NCBI RefSeq assembly: GCF_023702125.1
Contig: NZ_CP098415.1
Location: 2,728,001-2,792,000, forward strand
Direction: 5' to 3'
Length of the DNA: 64,000 nucleotides
From: Halorubrum hochsteinianum
GTDB taxonomy: Archaea; Halobacteriota; Halobacteria; Halobacteriales; Haloferacaceae
Shown: positions 620-36,322 of the stretch, piece by piece
Layout: every line of letters begins with the position of its first letter
Numbering within the stretch: position 1 is the stretch's first letter
The notes under the pieces: generated by a model
What the model was told of the DNA's origin: nothing
Database searches by the model: none
The model's input: only the letters and a program-made list of their open reading frames with translations
Position numbers and translations under genes: made by a program

Positions 620-1456
620 TCACTGTTTGACGAAGCGCTTGATGTTGTAGACCATACACATCAGAGCGATCTCGCGGAACTCACGGAACCAGGACCGCGC
701 TCGCACGGCGAAGCCGAGCGAGCGCTTCACAGCCGAGTTCACGGTTTCGGTCATAGAGCGCTGATTGTAGCGATTATCGTCGATTCTGGCGTTGTGTGCG
801 TGGTCGTACGGCGCGAAGATGCGGTGCTTGATCAGCGGTCTGATCCCAAGATCGCGTAATCCTTCGCGGAGCGATTTCTTGTCGTAGCCCTTATCGGCCG
901 CAAGAGACCGCAGATCGCCCGCGTTCCGGCGGGCGATCTGCTCAGCGAGATCTGCGTCACTTCCTTCTCGGTTCGTCGAGCAGTGAACGTCAAGGACAGC
1001 TTGCGACGCTGTATCGACGAGTTTCGTGACTTTCAGCTTTTGAACGCGGTAGCTGATTCGCTGGCAGTAGTGGCGGCTGGCTGGTGAGCGGTCGTAGAAT
1101 GTGGCGTCGATCGCGGCGTGTTCGGAGAGATCGTGCAGCTGCGCCGACTGGCGCAGCAGCACTCGACAAACACTCATACTGATCCGGTCGAACGCCTTAC
1201 ACAACGTGGACGGCGCAGGGAGATCGGCCGCGCTAAGGCCGATCTCCCCGGTTATTTGTGGCATCTCTTTGAGCAGGCCGATCGTCATGCGGTACGATGT
1301 ATCGAGGTAAATTCGCAGACAGTGGAGGGAAACGAGTGCGTAGTCGGCGAATCCGCCGCCGCCTTCCGGGGCGGCGGATTCGCCTCCATCGCCAGTAACT
1401 CTTTGAGCAACCGGCACAACCTCCCCGATGAAGCGGGAGATTTGTGTCATAGGCAA
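620..1456 (-). CDS. IS5-family transposase
   Basis: The 278-residue product is a DDE transposase of the IS5 group. The acidic residues appear in AIDATFYDRSP (first Asp), LAADKGYDKKS (second Asp) and MTETVNSAVKR (Glu), followed by a C-terminal RFVKQ. It would cut and rejoin the ends of its own element. The frame is intact and full length for the subgroup, and it lies wholly inside the 20-bp inverted repeats, so the element may still be active. A Gly-rich stretch near residue 30 (APEGGGGFADYAL) is normal for haloarchaeal copies. Confidence 0.88.
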   Translation of the reverse strand: MPMTQISRFIGEVVPVAQRVTGDGGESAAPEGGGGFADYALVSLHCLRIYLDTSYRMTIGLLKEMPQITGEIGLSAADLPAPSTLCKAFDRISMSVCRVLLRQSAQLHDLSEHAAIDATFYDRSPASRHYCQRISYRVQKLKVTKLVDTASQAVLDVHCSTNREGSDADLAEQIARRNAGDLRSLAADKGYDKKSLREGLRDLGIRPLIKHRIFAPYDHAHNARIDDNRYNQRSMTETVNSAVKRSLGFAVRARSWFREFREIALMCMVYNIKRFVKQ

Positions 1457-1511: not shown

Positions 1512-1531
1512 GCGATTCAACACAGCCGTTC
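1512..1531. repeat. Right terminal inverted repeat of the IS5-type element
   Basis: Exact reverse complement of 584-603. Its outer bases coincide with the last authentic codon (Glu, 1529-1531) of the interrupted histidine kinase. Confidence 0.85.
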
Positions 1532-4156
1532 GATCGCATTTTGGATCACGTTTCGCAGTGCTTGGTCGACGAGGTCGCTCGTGACCGCATGCTGGGCGGC
1601 CGGCAGATTGACAGCGAACGTCACTTCGCTCCGCTCGGTCCGGAGCGACGCTACCTGTGACCGTGCGCGATCGGCGACGTCAATCACCGTGTTGTAGTCT
1701 TCGCCCTCCTCGAACAGTTTCTGGGACTTGCGGACCTTCTTGCTCAACGCGAGGGTCTCTTCGACGACTTGGTAGATCGCTTCGACCTGTGTCTCCACCT
1801 CCGGTTCGTCTGACTGTCGATCGATGAGCTGTGCTGCGAGGAGAGCCTCGTTGAGGTTGTTTCGGAGGTCGTGACGAAGCACGCGCTGTAACACCGAGAG
1901 CCGCTGCTCTCGGCGGTACCGCTCCGTGATGTCGCTGGCGACCCCGACGTATCGCGTTGGACTGCCGCCCTCTCTCCCGTAGACCGGCGAAACGGACAAC
2001 TGGACGGTGTACCGTCGGCCGTCTTTCCGCCGAATGACAAACTCCGACTCCCACGTGTCGCCCGACTGTACCGTGTCCCACATCTCGTCGTGGATCGCCG
2101 CCGACTGCTCCGGCCATAACTCTTCCAGCGTCGACCCGACGGCCTCGTCACGGTCGTAGCCGGTCTGTTGCGCGAACGCTGAGTTGGCGTACTCGATGGT
2201 ACCCTCGTCCGACATCCAGAAGATCGCGTGGCCCGCGTCCTCGACCGCTCGCTCGAACGTCTGCAGCTCCCGCTCCCGGCGCTTTTGTTCCGAGATGTCG
2301 CGGCCGATTCCGACCACGCCGCTATCGGTCCCGTCCGGGCGGGTGAACCGACTGGCGCGGAACTCGTACGGAATCCGTTCCCCGTCGGACGTGACCACCG
2401 TCGCCTCTAATTTCGTGCGTCCCGCATCCTGCACTTCGTCGAACGCCGCTTTGATCGGTTCGCGATCGCTTTCCGCGATTACATCTGTCACGGCGAGCGA
2501 ATCGACCACCTCGTCGGCGTGACCGGTCACTTCGGGCAGTCGTTCGTTCCACCGCAGGAACGTTCCGTCCGCTCCGACCACGTAGAATATATCCTCAAGC
2601 GTGTCGAGCGCCTGCTCGGTGAGCGCACGCTCCCGCTCAAGCTCTTGCTGCTGACGCTTTCGGTCCGTGATATCGCTGGCGACGCCGATGATCCGTTCGA
2701 GTTCGCCGTCCTGATAGATTCCGCTCGATCGGTCCCGAACCCACCTGATGTCACCGTCCGGTCCGACGACGCGGTACGTCTCCTCGTACTCGTCCGGGTG
2801 TTCTGACTGTTCTTCCAGCGCCGAAGTCACGCGGTCCCGGTCGTCGCCGTGTATCCCCCGAATAAACGACGCGGGTTCCCGCTTGAGCGACTCGGGAGAC
2901 CGGCCCCAGACCGACTCGTAGGAGTCGCTGACGAACTCCATCTCGTCTTTGTCCGGGTCGCTGATCCAGATCACGTCCGAGACGTTCTGCCTGATCTGTT
3001 CGAGCCGCCTGACGCGACGCTTGTGGTCAGTGATGTCTGTGTACGTCCTGATCACCTCCGTCCCGTCCTCGGTGTCGGCGGCCAGTGCTGACCCGACCAA
3101 GAACGTCCGTTGCTCGCCGTCTGCGGTCTCTCGAACGACTTCCTGAGTGTGGGGATCCGAAGTGGCGTCGCCGGCGGCGACGCCCTCTGGAACGATCCGG
3201 TCCCCGAGCGTTGCGCCGATGAGCTCGGTCTCATCGTATCCGAAGACCTCAATGAACGCGTTGTTAACCCGTTCAATGACGAGTCCACGGTCGTCGCTCC
3301 GGGCCTGAACGAACGGAGAAGGAGCGGCATCGAATGTCGCCGCGAGCCGATCTCGTTCGCGTTTGATCTCCTCCTCGCGTCGCTTACGATCGGAGATATC
3401 GCGAAGCGCGCCGACGGTTCCCTCGAGTAGGTCGCCGGCGCGGATGAGCCCGACGTGATTCTCACAGAGAACTGTCGAACCGTCGGCGGCGATTACTTCC
3501 ATCTCGAAGGTGTTCTTGTCCTCGGCATCGGACTTCAACAGCGACCGTATCACCGACTTTCCGCGTTTGACGTCCTCTTCACCCATGATCGTTGAGACGT
3601 GTCGTCCCTCAAGTGCGGCGGGGTCCCAACCGGTAAGCTCGGCGAGTGCCTCGTTGGCGAACTCAAACCGTCCGTCGTCGTCCAGCACATACACCGGATC
3701 TCCGAAGGCGTTGACGGCCGTTTCGTACTGTTTGAGCTGTCTGCGGCGTTCGAACTCGCCGGTTACGTCCTCGTAGAGCCACATCGTTGCCTCTCCAGAG
3801 TCGTTCATCGGCAGGTAGCTCAGTTCGAACACCCGACCGTCAGGGACTTCCAGTCGCTCGCGGTGCGTCGGCGTCGATTGCTCGGTCAGCGTGGTCATCC
3901 GGCTCCCGATCTGACCGGGGCCGTCAAACGACGACTCAATTTCGTCGGCGACCGCTTCGAGACCCTCTCCGGTGACTGCTGAACGGTCCGAAATGTCGAA
4001 CTGCCGGCAGAAGTGGTCGTTCACGGCATACGCACCGGTTTGCGGTCTCGATAACAACACCCCCACGTCAACGGCACCGAGCGTCGAAAGCACCGCTTCG
4101 TTTCGCTTTTGGTTATTGGCGTGCCGATCTGCCACCGAGCGAATCTGCTCTGCCAC
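1517..4156 (-). pseudogene. Multi-PAS sensor histidine kinase, main fragment (broken at both ends)
   Basis: This fragment of about 879 codons holds at least five and probably six PAS/PAC units, each ending in a DISDRK- or DITDRK-type linker. A HisKA-like segment follows (RVLRHDLRNNLNEAL, phospho-acceptor His near residue 762), then the start of the ATPase domain up to the N-box residues NAIE. The G1 and G2 boxes of the ATPase are gone: after Glu the frame runs into the IS5-type element, adds three foreign residues and stops. The apparent start is a GTG that was originally an internal Val codon. The true N-terminus lies beyond the IS6 element at 4884-5210. Without an ATP site it cannot autophosphorylate. 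Confidence 0.9.
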
Positions 4157-4169
4157 TACCTTTCGGTCG

Positions 4170-4177
4170 GTTTCCGT
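4170..4177. repeat. Left target-site duplication of the IS6 element
   Basis: GTTTCCGT immediately precedes the left terminal repeat and is repeated exactly at 4876-4883. An 8-bp duplication is the hallmark of IS6-family transposition. Confidence 0.95.
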
Positions 4178-4875
4178 GGCGGTGTTCAGATAAGGTTTGA
4201 AAGGTGAGGCGGTGCGTTTTCAAAGTGATCTATGCCCGAAAACGACCGCCTCAGCGGCTGTTTAGACGAGATCAACTTAGAGTTTGTGGAGCGAGAGGCA
4301 ACACCGAAACTGTTGATGAAGCTCAGTATTCAGCTCCATTTGTCTGGACTGTCGCTTTCGAATACTGTTTCATTTCTTGAGGTATTTGGTGTTGATCGAG
4401 TTCGATCCACCGTTCATAACTGGGTACACAAAGCCGATCTACAGCCGGAAGCTGGTCGGAGCCCGAATCACGTTGCGGTTGACGAGACTGTGATTCAGCT
4501 CGATGATGAACAATACTGGCTGTACGCTGCTGTCGATCCTCAGTCAAACGATTTGCTACATACAAAGCTTGAGTCAACAAGAACGAACGTGATCGCAGAT
4601 CAGTTCTTCACGGAACTCCGCGACAAACACGACGTAGATGACGCGATCTTTCTCGTTGATGGTGCGGTTCCACTCCACCGAGCTTGTGACAAACACGGCC
4701 TCGATTTCAGATACGAACGACATGGAAATCGAAACAGCGTCGAACGTGTTTTTCGTGAGATAAAACGCAGAACTACCAGTTTCTCAAACTGTTTTAGCAA
4801 CGCCAAAGCAGAAACAGCAAACGAGTGGCTCAGATCGTTCGCCTTCGCATGGAATCAGCTTATCTGAACACTGCC
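4178..4875. mobile_element. IS6-family insertion sequence (698 bp)
   Basis: Terminal inverted repeats of 17 bp with one mismatch bound the element: GGCGGTGTTCAGATAAG at 4178-4194, and the reverse complement of GGCAGTGTTCAGATAAG at 4859-4875. Perfect 8-bp duplications flank it. It carries a single transposase gene. It sits inside the histidine kinase, and removing the element plus one duplication restores the kinase frame exactly. The exact duplications point to a fairly recent insertion. Confidence 0.95.
4232..4867 (+). CDS. IS6-family transposase
   Basis: The 211-residue product is a short DDE transposase like those of haloarchaeal IS6 elements. An N-terminal helix-turn-helix region precedes the catalytic core, with the first Asp in HVAVDETVI, the second in FLVDGAVPL, and the Glu in NSVERVFREIKRRT. 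The frame is complete and its stop lies within the right terminal repeat, as usual for the family. A+T content is higher than in the neighbours, which fits a mobile gene. IS6 elements normally move replicatively through cointegrates. Confidence 0.93.
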   Translation: MPENDRLSGCLDEINLEFVEREATPKLLMKLSIQLHLSGLSLSNTVSFLEVFGVDRVRSTVHNWVHKADLQPEAGRSPNHVAVDETVIQLDDEQYWLYAAVDPQSNDLLHTKLESTRTNVIADQFFTELRDKHDVDDAIFLVDGAVPLHRACDKHGLDFRYERHGNRNSVERVFREIKRRTTSFSNCFSNAKAETANEWLRSFAFAWNQLI

Positions 4876-4883
4876 GTTTCCGT
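4876..4883. repeat. Right target-site duplication of the IS6 element
   Basis: GTTTCCGT, identical to 4170-4177. Across this site the kinase reads ...ARCLPRPVTET, and on the other side of the element DRKVVAEQIRS. Confidence 0.95.
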
Positions 4884-5210
4884 CACGGGCCGCGGGAGAC
4901 ATCGTGCTGCCCCAGCGTTGAGCGCATCCGTGACCGTCTGCCTCTCCCGGTTCGCCGCGAGGACGATCACGGGAAGGTCCGGACGAGCCTCACGGACTCG
5001 TCGAAGCATACCAATACCGTCCGTCGCCGGCGGGTCGTGTTCGACGACGAAACACATCGCTCGGGTGTCGGAGGGGAGCAGCGAGTCGTCGGACTCGACT
5101 GTGGTGATGTCGATCCCCTCCGCCGCCTGCTCAAGACTGTCAGCACTGCTTCGTCCTCGTCCTCTGTCGGATGCGGCGTAGTGGACGGAGACTGTGTCAA
5201 CTACTCCCAC
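4884..5210 (-). pseudogene. N-terminal receiver-like fragment of the split histidine kinase
   Basis: These roughly 109 codons begin at an ATG and resemble a haloarchaeal receiver-like domain (FVVEHDPPATDGIGMLRRVR, then PVIVLAANRER and NAGAARCLPRP). The frame runs into the IS6 element, reading VTET before the duplication. Joined to the downstream fragment it gives VTET-DRKVVAEQIRS with no frame change, so the ancestral gene was one kinase of about 1000 residues or more. The usual 'D-x-K' receiver geometry looks degenerate, with Arg where Lys is expected after Leu-Pro. It is no longer linked to its output domains. Confidence 0.85.
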
Positions 5211-5321
5211 AATATCGCAACATCAAAATACCAAAGTGAAAAATGTTGCTCTCGTAATATTCCTATTGATATTTTCGATAGGGTAGAGGAAGATCCGTGG
5301 AAGACGTTGGTCACATGGGCG

Positions 5322-5924
5322 CTACAGGTCGCTCCAAGCGCCGAGGAACCGCTGGACCGCGGTGAGGTGCCCGACGACCGCGAACAGCGCGAGCAGGAGG
5401 CCGACGACGTTGAGCCCGGCGACGATCGGCTCCGAGTACGCGGCGGCGACGACGCCGCCGACCCCGATGAGCGCGAGTCGGTCCGCGCGCCCGAGGAGGC
5501 CGCCGTACTCGCGGCCGATGCCGACCGCCTGGATCTGCGTCCCGAGGTACGAGGTGAGGAGGACGCCCGTGACGGCGGCGAAGCCGAGCGCGTACGCCCC
5601 GATCCCGGCCGTGAGGCCTCCGATGACCGCCACGTCGGCGTAGCGGTCGAGGACGTGGTCGAGGAAGTCGCCGCCGTCCGAGGCGATCCCCTGGTGACGC
5701 GCGAGCGCCCCGTCGACGAGGTCCAGCCAGCCGTTGAGCAGGACGAGCAGCGCGCCGGCCGCGTAGAAGGCGGCCGACCCGGCGGCGAACGCGGCGGCGG
5801 CCCCGACCGCGACGAGGAAGGCGATCACGCTCACCTGATCCGGCGAGAGGCCGAGCCTGTCGGCCGCCGACACCCACGGGCCGAGCAGGCGGTCCGCCAC
5901 GAAGCGGTACTGGTCGAGGGTCAT
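5322..5924 (-). CDS. CDP-alcohol phosphatidyltransferase family membrane enzyme
   Basis: This 200-residue polytopic membrane protein transfers a phospho-alcohol head group or accepts a CDP-lipid. The signature D-x2-DG-x2-AR-x8-G-x3-D-x3-D is intact (DLVDGALARHQG, then DFLDHVLDR, near residues 68-95). It has about six hydrophobic helices. In archaea such enzymes make archaetidylglycerol phosphate, archaetidylinositol phosphate or archaetidylserine; the sequence alone does not say which. It follows the adenylate-kinase-like gene and hisC on the same strand with a 26-bp gap, so the three are probably co-transcribed. Confidence 0.88.
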   Translation of the reverse strand: MTLDQYRFVADRLLGPWVSAADRLGLSPDQVSVIAFLVAVGAAAAFAAGSAAFYAAGALLVLLNGWLDLVDGALARHQGIASDGGDFLDHVLDRYADVAVIGGLTAGIGAYALGFAAVTGVLLTSYLGTQIQAVGIGREYGGLLGRADRLALIGVGGVVAAAYSEPIVAGLNVVGLLLALFAVVGHLTAVQRFLGAWSDL

Positions 5925-5950
5925 CTACCGTCTCGACGCTCGCGGCCGGC

Positions 5951-6514
5951 TCATATATAATCGATGAAGTCCACGGTGCCGGCGCTCGGCTCGCGCTCGC
6001 CCTCGACCGCCGCGCGGATCGCGTCGGCGACGGCCTCGGGGTCGCGGTCGGTCGCGTCGACCTCGTAGACGTGCTCCGCGCCGTGTTCGGCGACCGCCTC
6101 CGAGAGGATCACGTCGAGCGCCTCGCTCTCCGCGTTCTCCGCGGCGGTCTCGGACGACTCGCCACGGGCCTCAAGTCGGGACTCGATCGTCTCGGGGCGA
6201 CAGCGCAACACGACCACGCGGTCGACGTCGAACCGGTGCGCGAGGTGCGAGTCGAGGACACCGGACCAGTCGCCGAGGTGTTCGCGGACCGCGTCGAGGT
6301 CGGCGACGAGCGTGTCGCGGTCGGCGTCGCGCTCGGTCCACAGGTCGCCGTCCGACTTGATCCGCTCGTTGAGGTGGATCACGTCGTACTCGCCTTCGAG
6401 CAGCGCCGTCGCCGTGGTCTTGCCCGTTCCCGGAGTCCCCGTAACGGCGACGCGGTCGGCGCGGCCGCCGCCGCCGTCGGCCGCGGCCTCCCGCGTCTCG
6501 GGCTCGCCGCTCAC
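5951..6514 (-). CDS. Adenylate kinase-like P-loop NTPase (Fap7/AK6 type)
   Basis: A P-loop (VAVTGTPGTGKTTATALL) near the N-terminus and a short kinase-like body (about 187 residues, IHLNER, DSHLAHRF, VVVLRCRPE) match the archaeal Fap7/AK6 family, which in eukaryotes acts in small-subunit ribosome maturation. The GTG at 6514 is chosen as start because it overlaps the hisC stop as GTGA; the same frame is open far upstream, but that part is antisense-like sequence inside hisC. The C-terminus (GTVDFIDYI) is typical of haloarchaeal copies. Confidence 0.85.
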   Translation of the reverse strand: MSGEPETREAAADGGGGRADRVAVTGTPGTGKTTATALLEGEYDVIHLNERIKSDGDLWTERDADRDTLVADLDAVREHLGDWSGVLDSHLAHRFDVDRVVVLRCRPETIESRLEARGESSETAAENAESEALDVILSEAVAEHGAEHVYEVDATDRDPEAVADAIRAAVEGEREPSAGTVDFIDYI

Positions 6515-7656: not shown

Positions 7657-9060
7657 TCACCCGCCCGGACCGCCCCTCGCCAACCGCCGCTCCGCCTCGT
7701 CGACGACCGCGGGCCGCCCCGCGAGTTCGACGGTGACGGCGTCGCCCTCGTAGTCGACGCCCTCGACGACGCCGCGGTCGTACGCCCACGAGAGGGCGGC
7801 CTGCGCGTCGCCGCCGTTCGGGGCCTCGACGGTCGCCGTCGCGGTCGGGAGCGCGTCCGCGACCGCCGCCGCGAGTTCGTCGAGGCCGGCGTCGTCGCGG
7901 GCGCTGACCGGGACCGGCGGGCGGAGCGACGCGACAACCGGCGACTCGTCCGGGTCGAGGTCGGCGACCGCGGCCTCGTACGCCTCGGTCGCCGCCGAGA
8001 GGTCGTCCGCCTCGGTCCCGGCTGCCCCCGCTTCGTCCGCCTTCGACAGCACGGGGATCACCGGGCCGTCGGTCGCCTCGATCGCCGACAGCGACGCCCG
8101 GAGCTTCCGGCGGAGGTCGGCCGGGTCGTCGCTCGCGTCGACGACGAGCAGCGCGCAGTCGGCGCGCCGGATCGCCTCGATGGTCGTCCGGAAGGAGCGC
8201 ACCGCCTCGTGGGGCAGGCCGTCGAGGAACCCGACGGTGTCCGTGACGAGCGTCCGCCGCCCGCCGATCGTCGCCCGCCGCGTCGTCGTCGAGAGCGTCT
8301 CGAACGGACCGTCGTCCACCGAGAGCGTCGCGGCGAGGTCGGCCGGCTCGCCGTCCGGCTCCGAGTCCGACACCTCGTCCGCGAGCCGACGCGCGAGCGT
8401 CGACTTCCCGGCGTTGGCGTAGCCAGCGAGCGCGACGAGGTCGAACCCGGCGTCCCGGCGCTCGGCCCGCCGCGCCGCCCGGTCGTCGGCGATCTCGTCG
8501 AGGGCGCGCTCGGCCGACTCGATCCGCTTTTCCACGTCGAGGACGCGGCTGTCGCCCTCCGGCCGGAGGCGCACGTCCTCCCCGCCGTCGCGGGCGATCG
8601 ACTCCCGGAGCCGGGGGAGCTCGTAGCGCAGCCGCGCCAGCTCCAACTGTCGGTCGGCGGCCCGGGAGTCGGCGGCGTCGGCGAACAGCTCCAACGCGAG
8701 CCGCGGGCGGTCGATCACCGCGGTCCCGGTCGGCAGCAGGTTGCCGAGCGAGAACGTCTGCCCCGGCGACAGCGACCCGTCGTAGATCACCGCCTCGGCG
8801 TCCGCGTCGGCGACCAGCCGCATCAGGTCCTCGGCCTTCCCGCGGCCGAGGTCGTAGGTCGGATCCTCGCGCCGTCGCTGGGTGACCTCGCCGACAACCG
8901 CGTAGCCGGCCGCGGCGGCCAGTTCGCGGATCTCGGTCGTGTCGGGAGGGCCATCGGGGGTCCGCGCGGCGACGACGGCGGGCGTCGCGTCTGTATCAGT
9001 CGGTCTGTCGGGGTCGTTCGATGCGTCGCGTTCGTTCGTCGTGGCGTCGTCTCGTGACAT
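7657..9060 (-). CDS. hflX: HflX-type GTPase
   Basis: The 467-residue product has the HflX layout: an N-terminal nucleotide-binding domain (YDLGRGKAEDL, DGSLSPGQTFSLGN), a coiled-coil linker (ADRQLELARLRYELPRLRE), then a GTPase domain with G1 GYANAGKST, G3 DTVGFL and G4-like SKAD. HflX proteins bind ribosomes and rescue or split stalled ones. The C-terminal tail after the GTPase domain is haloarchaea-like (LARGGPGG). It runs in the direction of hisC with a 51-bp gap. Confidence 0.92.
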   Translation of the reverse strand: MSRDDATTNERDASNDPDRPTDTDATPAVVAARTPDGPPDTTEIRELAAAAGYAVVGEVTQRRREDPTYDLGRGKAEDLMRLVADADAEAVIYDGSLSPGQTFSLGNLLPTGTAVIDRPRLALELFADAADSRAADRQLELARLRYELPRLRESIARDGGEDVRLRPEGDSRVLDVEKRIESAERALDEIADDRAARRAERRDAGFDLVALAGYANAGKSTLARRLADEVSDSEPDGEPADLAATLSVDDGPFETLSTTTRRATIGGRRTLVTDTVGFLDGLPHEAVRSFRTTIEAIRRADCALLVVDASDDPADLRRKLRASLSAIEATDGPVIPVLSKADEAGAAGTEADDLSAATEAYEAAVADLDPDESPVVASLRPPVPVSARDDAGLDELAAAVADALPTATATVEAPNGGDAQAALSWAYDRGVVEGVDYEGDAVTVELAGRPAVVDEAERRLARGGPGG

Positions 9061-33283: not shown

Positions 33284-33387
33284 GGAACGGGGTTCAGCGG
33301 GACGGTACTAAACGGTTCAGGCCGCGGATCGTGCCGTCGGAACCGATCCCCGATCCGAGGCCGTCGCGCTCGCCTCAGCGCGGACGA

Positions 33388-33618
33388 CTAACTCCGTTCG
33401 GCTCTCAGGATCAGTTCCGCCTTCTCCGTCAGGGTGTAAACCGTCCTTCGACCGTCCTCTTCGCCCTCGATGTAGTCCGCCGCTTCGAGTTCGGACAGGT
33501 GCTGGTAGATCGTACTTCCCTGTACGTTGAGTTCCTTCGCCAGAACGTAGCCGTGCCTCGGCTCGTCTTCCAACAGAGAGAGGATGCGACGCTTCGAGTC
33601 CGTCAGCGTGAGTCCCAT
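33388..33618 (-). CDS. Small winged-helix transcriptional regulator
   Basis: The 76-residue protein is a compact winged helix-turn-helix (LTDSKRRILSLLEDEPRHGYV, LAKELNVQGSTIYQHLSELE, then the wing EGEEDGRRTVYTLTEK), like PadR or ArsR/MarR-type DNA-binding domains. ATG 33618 is chosen because upstream in-frame sequence is not protein-like and overlaps the divergent promoter. The gene faces away from the methyltransferase cassette across an 82-base gap with AT-rich promoter elements, so it may be the controller of that cassette. Confidence 0.8.
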   Translation of the reverse strand: MGLTLTDSKRRILSLLEDEPRHGYVLAKELNVQGSTIYQHLSELEAADYIEGEEDGRRTVYTLTEKAELILRAERS

Positions 33619-33655
33619 CAGCCGGCTCTTGGCGTAGCCCGGTGAAAAACAATGT

Positions 33656-33664
33656 AAATATAAG
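33656..33664 (+). promoter_or_regulatory. TATA-like box of the modification cassette
   Basis: AAATATAAG lies 37-45 bases before the ATG at 33701. The 82-base divergent gap also has to serve the wHTH gene, so the two promoters must overlap. This arrangement is common for control of restriction genes. Confidence 0.5.
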
Positions 33665-33700
33665 CGCCTATGGGTAGGTAACCACCTGCGTAATATCCGG

Positions 33701-34414
33701 ATGGTGGAGAACTCAAGTAGCCAGCCCGCCCAAGACACTGGTAATCAGATGTATTTAGTCGATCTGCGGGAACAAATTCGGAGTTCGGACTCCCTCGACG
33801 CGGCTCTCCGATCTACAGACGGCGTCTGGGAGGACATCTACGAGGCGATGGAGCCGACGGAGACGCTCTGGGTCATCGCCCCCAACGACTACCGTGACGG
33901 TCGGATGTGGCCGTGTGCGTTGGCATTTGCGGATTACATTCGAGACGGAGCCGCCTTCGATCTCAAGAACACGATCAGCGTACACTCACGCGAAGCCACC
34001 ACCGACGAGCCCGACCTCCGGCCGAGTTACTGCGACATCCTCTTTCTCGTGCGCGACAAGCGAAACTATCAGTTCCACAAGGACCGGATACGGGTCTCAC
34101 ACGTCTACGAGGGGAACGAGTGGGGTGACGACCGAGAGACCGGCCAAAGCGCCTATCACGACACGGAAGTCAGACGGTACAACCCGGAGGGCAAAGACCC
34201 CGGTAACGTCTGGCTGCGCGAAGACCGCACTCAGACGAGCGATCAGTCCGTGGACGAAACCGGCACCCTCTCTCTCTCCGAAGCCGTCCGGCGGTGCGTG
34301 CTAGCGGGGTCGGGCGACGGGGAGACGGTCAACGCGCTGTGGGCCGACGACTTCGAAGACGCGATCACCGCCGAGAACCGAACGATGAACGATATCGAAG
34401 CGGGGACGTTGTGA
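33701..34414 (+). CDS. Degenerate DNA-methyltransferase-like protein (putative partner subunit)
   Basis: This 237-residue protein parallels the core of the next gene, an active methyltransferase. Stretches align in order: ETLWVIAPNDYRDGRMW with GTMWIVVDTVMERG; a YCDILFLVRDKRNYQFHKDR segment with EYVVYLSKNRDHEFDDGDR; DPGNVWLRED with GNLWRHP; then VRRCVLAGSGDGETVN with IVKVSTDEGDTVLDP. The catalytic SPPY motif and the SAM-binding DPFxGSGTT are both missing, so it is probably not catalytic. It overlaps the next gene (TGATG). A dead partner to an active methylase, for DNA recognition or allostery, is the best guess. Confidence 0.68.
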   Translation: MVENSSSQPAQDTGNQMYLVDLREQIRSSDSLDAALRSTDGVWEDIYEAMEPTETLWVIAPNDYRDGRMWPCALAFADYIRDGAAFDLKNTISVHSREATTDEPDLRPSYCDILFLVRDKRNYQFHKDRIRVSHVYEGNEWGDDRETGQSAYHDTEVRRYNPEGKDPGNVWLREDRTQTSDQSVDETGTLSLSEAVRRCVLAGSGDGETVNALWADDFEDAITAENRTMNDIEAGTL

Positions 34415-35196
34415 TGCCGGAACTCGACGACTTCCCCGACCTCGACGTTCACTGGAGTTCCAGCGAGGAGATGGCCGAAGTCGAGGACGGGTCCGTACAG
34501 TCCGTCATCACTTCGCCGCCCTACTGGGATCTGAAAGACTACGGGCACGAAGAGCAGATCGGCACCTCCGACGAGTCCTACGAGCGCTACCACGACCGTC
34601 TGGACCGAGTCTGGAGCGAGTGCTACGACGTCCTCCGCGAGGACGGCACGATGTGGATCGTCGTGGACACGGTCATGGAGAGAGGCGATCTCAAGCTGTT
34701 ACCGTATCACATTGCGGAGCGCGCGGAAGCTGTCGGGTTCGTCCTACAGGACGTGGCGGTCTGGCACAAACCGACCGCCATCGCGGGGATGACCGACAGA
34801 AACGTCGTCAACAAAAAGGAGTACGTGGTCTATCTCTCGAAGAACAGGGACCACGAGTTCGACGACGGGGATCGAGAGCACGGCCTCGAAGACCCCGCGG
34901 TGTCCGAAGGCGATCGACTCGGCAACCTCTGGAGACACCCCGTCAAGCGCGGATCCGTCGGTACCAACGTGCTTCATAAAGCCCCCTATCCCGCGTCCCT
35001 CGTCGACAGGATCGTGAAGGTCTCGACCGACGAGGGCGACACCGTTCTCGACCCGTTCCTCGGCAGTGGCACGACCGCGAAGTCCGCCCTTCGCCTCCAG
35101 AGAAAGTGTATCGGCTACGAACTCAACGAGGACTTTGACGACGTCATCGCCGACCGCCTCTCCGATCTCGCGCAGCAGTCGCTCACCGACTTCTGA
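34414..35196 (+). CDS. Beta-class DNA methyltransferase (amino-methylating)
   Basis: The 260-residue enzyme has motif IV TSPPYW (residues 33-38, TSPPYWDLKDYG) before motif I (DPFLGSGTTAKSALRLQRKC, from residue 213). That order defines the beta class, and SPPY suggests N4-cytosine or N6-adenine methylation. It ends ELNEDFDDVIADRLSDLA like other type II methylases. It is translationally coupled to the degenerate partner (ATG 34414 overlaps its stop), and followed by the probable nuclease. It probably protects the host sequence that the nuclease would cut. Confidence 0.88.
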   Translation: MPELDDFPDLDVHWSSSEEMAEVEDGSVQSVITSPPYWDLKDYGHEEQIGTSDESYERYHDRLDRVWSECYDVLREDGTMWIVVDTVMERGDLKLLPYHIAERAEAVGFVLQDVAVWHKPTAIAGMTDRNVVNKKEYVVYLSKNRDHEFDDGDREHGLEDPAVSEGDRLGNLWRHPVKRGSVGTNVLHKAPYPASLVDRIVKVSTDEGDTVLDPFLGSGTTAKSALRLQRKCIGYELNEDFDDVIADRLSDLAQQSLTDF

Positions 35197-35232
35197 GTCC
35201 GCGACCGCTTCGGTTCACCGTCGCGTAGACAC

Positions 35233-35248
35233 ATAGGAGATCACCTAT
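35233..35248. promoter_or_regulatory. Imperfect palindrome ATAGG-AGATCA-CCTAT before the nuclease gene
   Basis: Arms ATAGG and CCTAT flank a GATC-centred core, 23 bases upstream of the TATA-like box at 35271-35278. The gap between methylase and nuclease is 106 bases, so the nuclease has its own promoter. A C-protein-like site for the wHTH regulator is possible. Confidence 0.4.
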
Positions 35249-35270
35249 ACAACGGCGATCGCGGGCTCAT

Positions 35271-35278
35271 ACTATATG
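35271..35278 (+). promoter_or_regulatory. TATA-like box of the restriction-enzyme-like gene
   Basis: ACTATATG lies 25-32 bases before the GTG start at 35303, the spacing of a leaderless transcript. Confidence 0.5.
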
Positions 35279-35302
35279 CGGTGATGGCGAGCGAATACCG
35301 AC

Positions 35303-36175
35303 GTGTCAGACAGCGACCCTTGGACGGATGTCCTCGGATATACCGATCTGGGAACCGAACGTCGCGAAGTCATCAAAGAGGAGATAAAAGAACTCGTTCA
35401 GAACCTCCCGCAGGACCATCCGGGGATCTTCGAAGACCACGACGTCTCCGCCCGGGACTACTCCCGGAACCTCGACACCGCGATCCACTCGTTGGACGGC
35501 ACGATCAAGGCCAAGAGAGGCAAAGACAACGAGGACGTCGTTCGGGAGGTCTTTCTCGAACCCGGTCGGGAAGCCGGGCTACTCGAGTTCACCGACCAGC
35601 GGGGGAGCGAACGGATCGATTTCAAGGGCACGCTCGCCACGGGCGACACGTTCGCGATGGACGTGAAGGGTGGCGAGGGGCAGTCGATCGGACACCTACT
35701 TGTTCCGTCCAACACCGACGTCCTCTCTCTGTGGAGCGAGCGCAACTCTCGGAACACGAAATCCCCCGCGTCTCGACTGAACGAAGTCATCAACCGAGCG
35801 GTTCGCTGGAGCCTGAATCAGAGCGAAGACCTCTCCGTGATGGTCGTGCGCGACGAGCCCGCGGGGGCGCGGACGGACGAAGGCGAAGTCATCCCCGACG
35901 TTGTCGTGTTCCCCGAGGAGTTCCCGACGCCCGAGAACCCGAACCCCTCGATGCCCGACATCGATGACCTCGAATACGCCAGGATCGTCTTCGAGATACT
36001 CACCGGAAACGGAGACCTCAGCGCCGAGGGGACGCGGAAACACATCTGGTGGCACGAACTCGAGTATCGGCACGACGAGGAGAAGATCGACAAACGGATC
36101 TACAACGACTACGACGACAGCATCACTCTCACTACTCAGTCCATAGAGTTCGAACGCATCTCCGACGTTTCGTGA
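35303..36175 (+). CDS. Probable type II restriction endonuclease, PD-(D/E)xK fold
   Basis: The 290-residue protein has a likely nuclease site at residues 106-122: Asp106 in RIDFKG, then Asp120 and Lys122 in AMDVKGGEG, giving D-x13-D-x-K. The surrounding text (ERIDFKGTLATGDTFAMDVK) fits a PD-(D/E)xK core. I do not recognise a named family. It is next to the methyltransferase pair on the same strand with its own promoter. GTG 35303 is the start; the ATG slightly upstream is out of frame. It could instead be a Mrr- or nicking-type nuclease. Confidence 0.68.
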   Translation: MSDSDPWTDVLGYTDLGTERREVIKEEIKELVQNLPQDHPGIFEDHDVSARDYSRNLDTAIHSLDGTIKAKRGKDNEDVVREVFLEPGREAGLLEFTDQRGSERIDFKGTLATGDTFAMDVKGGEGQSIGHLLVPSNTDVLSLWSERNSRNTKSPASRLNEVINRAVRWSLNQSEDLSVMVVRDEPAGARTDEGEVIPDVVVFPEEFPTPENPNPSMPDIDDLEYARIVFEILTGNGDLSAEGTRKHIWWHELEYRHDEEKIDKRIYNDYDDSITLTTQSIEFERISDVS

Positions 36176-36322
36176 CGAGCGCCGACTGCGTCGGAGTGAC
36201 GAGCGACGCCGCGTAGCGAGCCGACCGCTCCGGACGGATCTGCGCCGGTCCCGGTGAGGGTCCGGACGAGACACGTGGATAACTTATTTACCCGACGCCC
36301 GCGACGCCAGTAACAAGTCCGA

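What the first reader, a model, noticed from the sequence alone, without database searches (positions are those of the whole stretch)
33388..36175. Unusual modification-restriction cassette: methyltransferase plus a degenerate methyltransferase partner
Two adjacent coupled genes align along their length, but only the second keeps TSPPYW and DPFLGSGTT; the first has lost both. The third has a PD-(D/E)xK site (Asp106, Asp120, Lys122). A divergent winged-helix gene shares their 82-base promoter region. A methylase with a dead partner is reminiscent of METTL3-METTL14 and is not a standard type II arrangement. GC is lower than in the neighbours, suggesting transfer. Cassette architecture is directly visible; function is inferred.
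Basis: partly seen in the sequence, partly recalled or inferred. Interest (0 to 1): 0.78.

Follow-up and report, generated by a model that had tools for sequence, protein, structure and literature searches.

The report
Methylase split into reader and catalyst
In salt-loving archaea, a mobile four-gene restriction cassette seems to have divided its DNA-methylating enzyme into a dead copy that reads the sequence and a live copy that does the chemistry, and it carries its own regulator, which makes it a natural test of how two-part methylases arise.

Summary
In this Halorubrum-type genome, 33388-36175 is a four-gene cassette: winged-helix regulator (-), dead methyltransferase (MTase), active beta-class MTase, and a predicted PD-(D/E)XK nuclease. 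The same four genes in the same order occur in about a dozen haloarchaeal genera, mostly with unrelated flanks. All 13 close orthologues of the active MTase found sit beside the dead gene. One genome keeps only the MTase pair, so the pair is a unit without the nuclease.

(1) The dead protein lost the catalytic and SAM motifs but kept, and most strongly conserves, the target-recognition domain (TRD). The active protein is the mirror image: catalytic motifs intact, recognition segment deleted (TRD profile 31-48 bits against at most 6). This points to division of labour: dead = reader, active = catalyst. (2) A palindrome, CCTATGCATAGG, lies in both the divergent promoter and the nuclease promoter, and is absent where the regulator is absent: the probable operator of a controller circuit.

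Shown: homology, motif loss, co-occurrence, purifying selection, palindrome. Inferred: heterodimer, specificity, nuclease activity, regulation. METTL3-METTL14 is an analogy; EcoP15I Mod2 is the better mechanistic precedent.

The parts
33388..33618 (-). Winged-helix regulator, 76 aa, PadR/ArsR-like; predicted controller of the cassette
   Evidence: PF03551 7e-10 on the longer 116-aa frame; ATG start supported by orthologues of 78-81 aa; present divergently beside all 13 intact cassettes
33619..33700 (.). 82-bp divergent promoter region
   Evidence: 81-87 bp in all intact cassettes
33667..33678 (.). Palindrome (CCTATGGGTAGG here, consensus CCTATGCATAGG), predicted operator at the regulator and MTase promoters
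   Evidence: at most 2 mismatches in 12 of 12 distinct cassettes, never that good elsewhere in the intact loci
33701..34414 (+). Dead beta-class MTase, 237 aa; predicted recognition subunit
   Evidence: PF01555 positions 16-151 of 221; no motif IV or I in 13 orthologues; TRD residues 119-176 mean pairwise identity 0.81 against 0.61 and 0.51 elsewhere; dN/dS 0.14
34414..35196 (+). Active beta-class amino-MTase, 260 aa, TSPPYW and DPFLGSGTT; predicted catalytic subunit
   Evidence: PF01555 2.5e-44; PDB 2zie 3e-24; structure match to M.BceJIV, CcrM, M.PvuII, Z about 20-22; TRD-equivalent residues 143-171 the least conserved part of the core
35197..35302 (.). Nuclease promoter region
   Evidence: 103-204 bp in all intact cassettes
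35244..35255 (.). Second copy of the palindrome (CCTATACAACGG here, degenerate: 3 mismatches), 47 bp upstream of the nuclease start
   Evidence: 46-47 bp spacing in all cassettes; 9 of 12 hold a site with at most 2 mismatches, at most 1 of 12 in 2000 shuffles
35303..36175 (+). Predicted PD-(D/E)XK restriction endonuclease, 290 aa, no named family
   Evidence: D106, D120, K122 invariant in 13 orthologues; no Pfam, NCBIfam, PADLOC, PHROGs or PDB sequence match of note; always linked to the MTase pair

Best explanation
This is a mobile type II-like restriction-modification cassette of haloarchaea whose modification enzyme is an obligate heteromer. In a beta-class MTase dimer one subunit can read the site with its TRD while the other methylates. 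Here the two roles have come to lie on two homologous genes that degenerated in a complementary way. The 237-aa product kept the TRD and lost catalysis and SAM binding (reader). The 260-aa product kept catalysis and SAM binding and lost the TRD (catalyst). Together they methylate the cassette's target, probably as m4C, though m6A is not excluded. The PD-(D/E)XK protein cleaves unmethylated copies of the same target. The winged-helix protein binds CCTATGCATAGG in both promoters; the geometry (over the TATA position of a leaderless MTase operon, further upstream of its own gene and of the nuclease gene) suggests that it represses the MTase pair and switches on itself and the nuclease, so that protection comes first. 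Shown: gene content, homology, motif loss and retention, co-occurrence, purifying selection, shared palindrome. Inferred: complex formation, specificity, cleavage, direction of regulation.
For: Intact four-gene cassette in about a dozen genera. The dead gene sits beside 13 of 13 close orthologues of the active MTase. The pair alone, without nuclease or regulator, is kept in one genome (L033), which ties the dead protein to the MTase. The two genes abut or overlap (-8 to 0 nt) in 13 loci. TRD profile made only from intact single-chain MTases: dead 31-48 bits, active at most 6 bits. Conservation is inverted in the two proteins. dN/dS 0.14 for the dead gene; pairwise identities of dead and active correlate at 0.92. 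Seven distant matches of the dead profile or protein were read and are single-chain MTases with motif IV, motif I or a close variant of it, and a TRD of the same type. Palindrome in both promoters with fixed spacing, absent upstream of the pair in L033, which has no regulator. Trans recognition is established for EcoP15I Mod2 (PMC4490356).
Against: No direct evidence of a complex, of methylation or of cleavage. Pairwise similarity of the two MTase-like proteins is low. In the predicted fusion model (pLDDT 60) the TRD is below 50 and the interface was not assessed; the dead half was not matched separately to known folds. The nuclease model failed (pLDDT 46) and its family is unknown. A tree does not resolve whether the two MTase-like proteins came from one gene or two.
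Confidence: 0.66

Rival explanations
1. The dead protein is an allosteric or structural partner of the active MTase (as METTL14 is partly described), needed for folding or SAM binding, while sequence recognition is done elsewhere.
For: Active plus dead MTase pairs of this kind exist (METTL3-METTL14, MTA1-MTA9; PMC9852454); strict co-occurrence fits any obligate partner.
Against: The recognition segment, not a general surface, is the most conserved part of the dead protein, and the active protein has lost its own.
Confidence: 0.17
2. The dead protein acts with the nuclease or the regulator (for example as the specificity subunit of the nuclease, or as an MTase-derived repressor), not with the MTase.
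For: Some MTases double as repressors of their own operons (PMC12707154); pairwise identities of dead protein and nuclease also correlate (0.94).
Against: One genome keeps the dead-active pair without nuclease or regulator; the dead gene abuts or overlaps the active MTase gene, not the nuclease gene.
Confidence: 0.08
3. The dead gene is a decaying leftover of a two-MTase system, without a function.
For: Loss of both catalytic motifs; one genome (L034) holds a decayed cassette.
Against: Intact frame in 14 genomes, dN/dS 0.14, an invariant TRD core and 13 of 13 co-occurrence.
Confidence: 0.03
4. Not classical restriction: the third protein is a modification-dependent or other effector nuclease and the pair makes an epigenetic mark, or the shared palindrome is the MTase's own target, giving control by methylation rather than by the winged-helix protein.
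For: Nuclease family unknown; promoter-methylation control is known in other systems (PMC12707154).
Against: The palindrome is absent upstream of the MTase pair in L033, which lacks the regulator; it degenerates by up to 3-4 mismatches in some hosts, this window included, while the TRD stays conserved.
Confidence: 0.12

Closest known systems
EcoP15I Mod2 (type III beta-class MTase dimer)
   Same: Recognition by the TRD of one subunit and methylation by the other subunit (PMC4490356); same MTase class.
   Different: There the two subunits are identical and both intact; here the two roles are carried by two diverged genes. No type III Res helicase gene in the cassette.
METTL3-METTL14 and MTA1-MTA9
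   Same: One MTase with intact catalytic motif plus one MTase-like protein with eroded motif (PMC9852454).
   Different: MT-A70 family with DPPW; eukaryotic; act on RNA, or on DNA with extra DNA-binding subunits; no linked nuclease. The active half here matches them only at Z about 12-13 against about 22 for prokaryotic beta-class MTases.
Type II restriction-modification systems with two MTases (LlaJI; MhoVII with fused M1 and M2)
   Same: Two MTase genes or domains and a nuclease in one system (PMC12707154; PMC12898733).
   Different: There two MTase activities serve the site (LlaJI full modification of an asymmetric site; MhoVII two complementary activities); here one of the two has no catalytic or SAM motif.
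C-protein controlled type II systems (PvuII, Esp1396I)
   Same: Dedicated regulator acting on its own and the nuclease gene, in some cases also repressing the MTase gene (PMC12707154).
   Different: Those are bacterial HTH C proteins; here a PadR/ArsR-like winged-helix protein with archaeal promoters.
M.AquI two-subunit m5C MTase (recalled, not tested)
   Same: One MTase activity divided over two genes.
   Different: m5C class and a split of one chain, not a pair of complementary homologues.

Membership tests
Beta-class amino-MTase (PF01555), active gene | Motif IV (S/D/N)PP(Y/W) before motif I FxGxG, with the class fold | tested here: met
   TSPPYW then DPFLGSGTT, pattern invariant in 14 orthologues; PF01555 2.5e-44; Z about 22 to beta-class MTases
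Beta-class amino-MTase (PF01555), dead gene | Family homology | tested here: met
   PF01555 3e-6, best orthologue 5e-11; profile comparison E 1.8e-7
Beta-class amino-MTase (PF01555), dead gene | Catalytic motif IV and SAM motif I | tested here: not met
   Absent in all 13 aligned orthologues
Type II restriction-modification system | Linked MTase and restriction endonuclease genes | tested here: met
   MTase pair and PD-(D/E)XK-like gene adjacent in all 13 intact loci
Type II restriction-modification system | Nuclease cleaves the site that the MTase protects | not testable with these tools
   No biochemical data; site unknown
PD-(D/E)XK nuclease | D...(D/E)xK active-site residues | tested here: met
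   D106, D120, K122 invariant in 13 orthologues
PD-(D/E)XK nuclease | Restriction-endonuclease fold | tested here: inconclusive
   AlphaFold2 pLDDT 46 with five sequences; no sequence match to solved structures
Type III restriction-modification system | Res helicase-nuclease subunit | tested here: not met
   None in the cassette; the third protein is 290 aa with no family match
METTL3-METTL14 / MT-A70 | DPPW motif and MT-A70 family | tested here: not met
   Motif is TSPPYW; only PF01555 (and a sub-threshold UPF0020) matched
C-protein regulated system | Repeated operator-like site at regulator and nuclease promoters | tested here: met
   CCTATGCATAGG in both, fixed spacing
C-protein regulated system | Regulator of the HTH C-protein family | tested here: not met
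   PadR/ArsR-like winged helix instead
C-protein regulated system | Regulator binds the operator and controls the genes | not testable with these tools
   Needs binding and expression experiments

The most novel reading that the evidence does not exclude
A prokaryotic DNA methyltransferase in which one homologue has become a pure sequence-reading subunit and the other a pure catalyst, so that specificity could in principle be changed by exchanging the dead gene alone, within an archaeal restriction cassette run by a winged-helix controller that represses modification and activates restriction from one operator sequence.
Probability: 0.45. Interest if true: 0.78.

Novelty: new variant of a known kind. 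Interest (0 to 1): 0.62.

Why it matters
Active-dead methyltransferase pairs such as METTL3-METTL14 are described mainly in eukaryotes. A compact archaeal pair with complementary loss of recognition and catalysis would show how such pairs arise from symmetric beta-class dimers in which recognition already works in trans. It would also give a two-gene system in which reading and chemistry can be mutated separately, and a nuclease family and an archaeal controller circuit that, as far as the searches here show, have not been described.

Tried and rejected
Viral contigs: no relative of the dead protein; the single hit for the nuclease, L037, is a 27-residue chance match inside an unrelated short ORF of a tailed-virus-like contig. 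Phage and plasmid collections: only a Haloquadratum walsbyi plasmid holds the dead protein or the nuclease; weaker phage hits (Burkholderia phage DC1, mycobacteriophages) are annotated methyltransferases, and the DC1 one, which was read, has motif IV and a TRD. Nuclease fold: model too poor to search. Dead half of the fused model: the list of known folds is filled by the active half, so it was not tested on its own. Clean empty site: in Halorubrum relatives left-flank homology ends at about 33327-33342 and right-flank homology begins near 36251-36274, but the two flanks were not found side by side there, so no empty site could be read. Duplication against independent origin of the two MTase-like genes: tree not resolved. 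Literature: no description of this cassette found in the open library; REBASE and most subscription papers were not available. The haloarchaeal survey PMC6471742 lists family letters that could not be mapped to these genes.

Full report
What is there. The window lies on the larger contig of a 3.06-Mb haloarchaeal genome; a genome of the same genus with the same locus at 96% matches Halorubrum tebenquichense. Between an amidohydrolase-like gene and a cobalamin-type gene cluster (functions read from sequence, not searched) lies a four-gene cassette of lower GC (60% against 71%): a winged-helix regulator on the - strand, then, divergently, a 237-aa protein, a 260-aa MTase and a 290-aa protein. 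The two MTase-like genes share one base (TGATG).

The first gene is a dead MTase. It matches PF01555 only in the middle of the profile (3e-6, positions 16-151 of 221), and its family profile aligns with that of the active MTase over 157 columns (E 1.8e-7). None of 13 aligned orthologues has motif IV or motif I. The secondary structure predicted for it follows the order seen in its partner. It is not a pseudogene: 14 intact frames, dN/dS 0.14 against the nearest relative.

The pair is a unit. Of 292 haloarchaeal genomes, 13 hold a close orthologue of the active MTase (E below 1e-60) and every one of these also holds the dead gene. The genes abut or overlap by up to 8 nt in all 13 intact cassettes. 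All intact loci carry the regulator and the nuclease-like gene in the same order. One further genome (L033) keeps only the MTase pair, beside a ParB-like gene, and one locus (L034) is decayed. Flanks are unrelated between hosts, apart from the window and H. tebenquichense and one further pair, and the distribution is scattered (15 of 391 genomes, 12 of 86 genera), as expected of a mobile cassette. No integrase or transposase was recognised within it.

Complementary loss. Aligned with intact single-chain MTases, the dead protein keeps the segment Y-F-x-D-x-IRV ... NPxGKxPGxVW between motifs VIII and X, which I take to be the target-recognition region (assignment from general knowledge of beta-class MTases), while the active protein has a deletion there. 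A profile built only from the intact MTases gives 31-48 bits for all 13 dead proteins and at most 6.2 bits for the 14 active ones. Conservation is inverted: in the dead protein the recognition segment is the most conserved part (0.81 against 0.61 and 0.51), in the active one the corresponding piece is the least conserved part of the core (0.58 against 0.80 and 0.74). Seven distant matches of the dead protein in archaea and a phage were read and are single-chain MTases with motif IV and motif I or a close variant of it. This is what is expected if one subunit reads and the other methylates. In EcoP15I one Mod subunit recognises DNA and the other methylates, and its authors state that a single subunit cannot do both (PMC4490356).

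The nuclease. The 290-aa protein has D106, D120 and K122 invariant in 13 orthologues, inside ERIDFKG ... FAMDVKGGEGQSIGHL. It has no convincing match in Pfam, NCBIfam, PADLOC, PHROGs or solved structures. In 393 genomes of the phylum it was found only in cassette-bearing haloarchaea. The structure model failed, so the nuclease assignment rests on motif and context.

The regulator and its probable operator. Aligning the two intergenic regions of the cassettes shows a palindrome, CCTATGCATAGG, in both. It is present with at most 2 mismatches upstream of the MTase pair in 12 of 12 distinct cassettes and upstream of the nuclease in 9 of 12, against at most 1 of 12 in 2000 shuffles. No site that good occurs elsewhere in the intact loci, and none upstream of the pair in L033, which lacks the regulator. 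Among the inverted 12-mers tested (those with six or more hits in the first region) it scores best. Spacing is 46-47 bp to the nuclease start, 44-50 bp to the regulator start and 20-28 bp to the MTase start. In the window both copies are degenerate (2 and 3 mismatches). The reading that the protein represses the MTase operon and activates itself and the nuclease is inference from archaeal promoter geometry.

Known and new. Two-MTase restriction systems, dimer division of labour, active-dead MTase pairs in eukaryotes and controller proteins are each known. The combination in one archaeal cassette, with reader and catalyst on separate homologous genes, was not found in the literature available here. 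I file it as a new variant of a type II-like restriction-modification system, not as a member of MT-A70 or of type III.

Noticed in passing
L033 (G185:C40) 4720-6185, with neighbours 3556-4614 and 7843-9024: The dead-active MTase pair without nuclease or regulator, next to a ParB-like gene with a DUF488-like C-terminal part and not far from an ATPase-like gene on the other strand; possibly a provirus- or plasmid-borne orphan modification enzyme.
   Followed up: partly
window 620-1456, 4232-4867, 1517-4156: Low-GC stretch with two transposase-like ORFs on either side of a long PAS-repeat sensor-kinase-like gene.
   Followed up: no
L034 (G362:C116) about 4388-5214: Decayed copy of the cassette: the dead MTase is broken by stops, the active MTase was not detected and only a stretch of the nuclease remains, with the promoter still recognisable.
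   Followed up: partly
L026 142-3285 and L032 1223-4364: The two cassettes share a 3.2-kb flanking segment (66% identity) although other flanks are unrelated; it may be another travelling gene.
   Followed up: no
L023 (Haloquadratum walsbyi C23 plasmid PL100) 70-2196, 7678-10516 and 13449-16711: On this plasmid the cassette lies a few kb from type I-like MTase and specificity genes and a DUF262 gene, so in a defence-rich stretch.
   Followed up: no
window about 33342 and 36251-36274: Both boundaries of the cassette coincide with breaks of homology in Halorubrum relatives, and the two flanks were not found side by side there: the cassette may sit at a rearrangement junction.
   Followed up: partly
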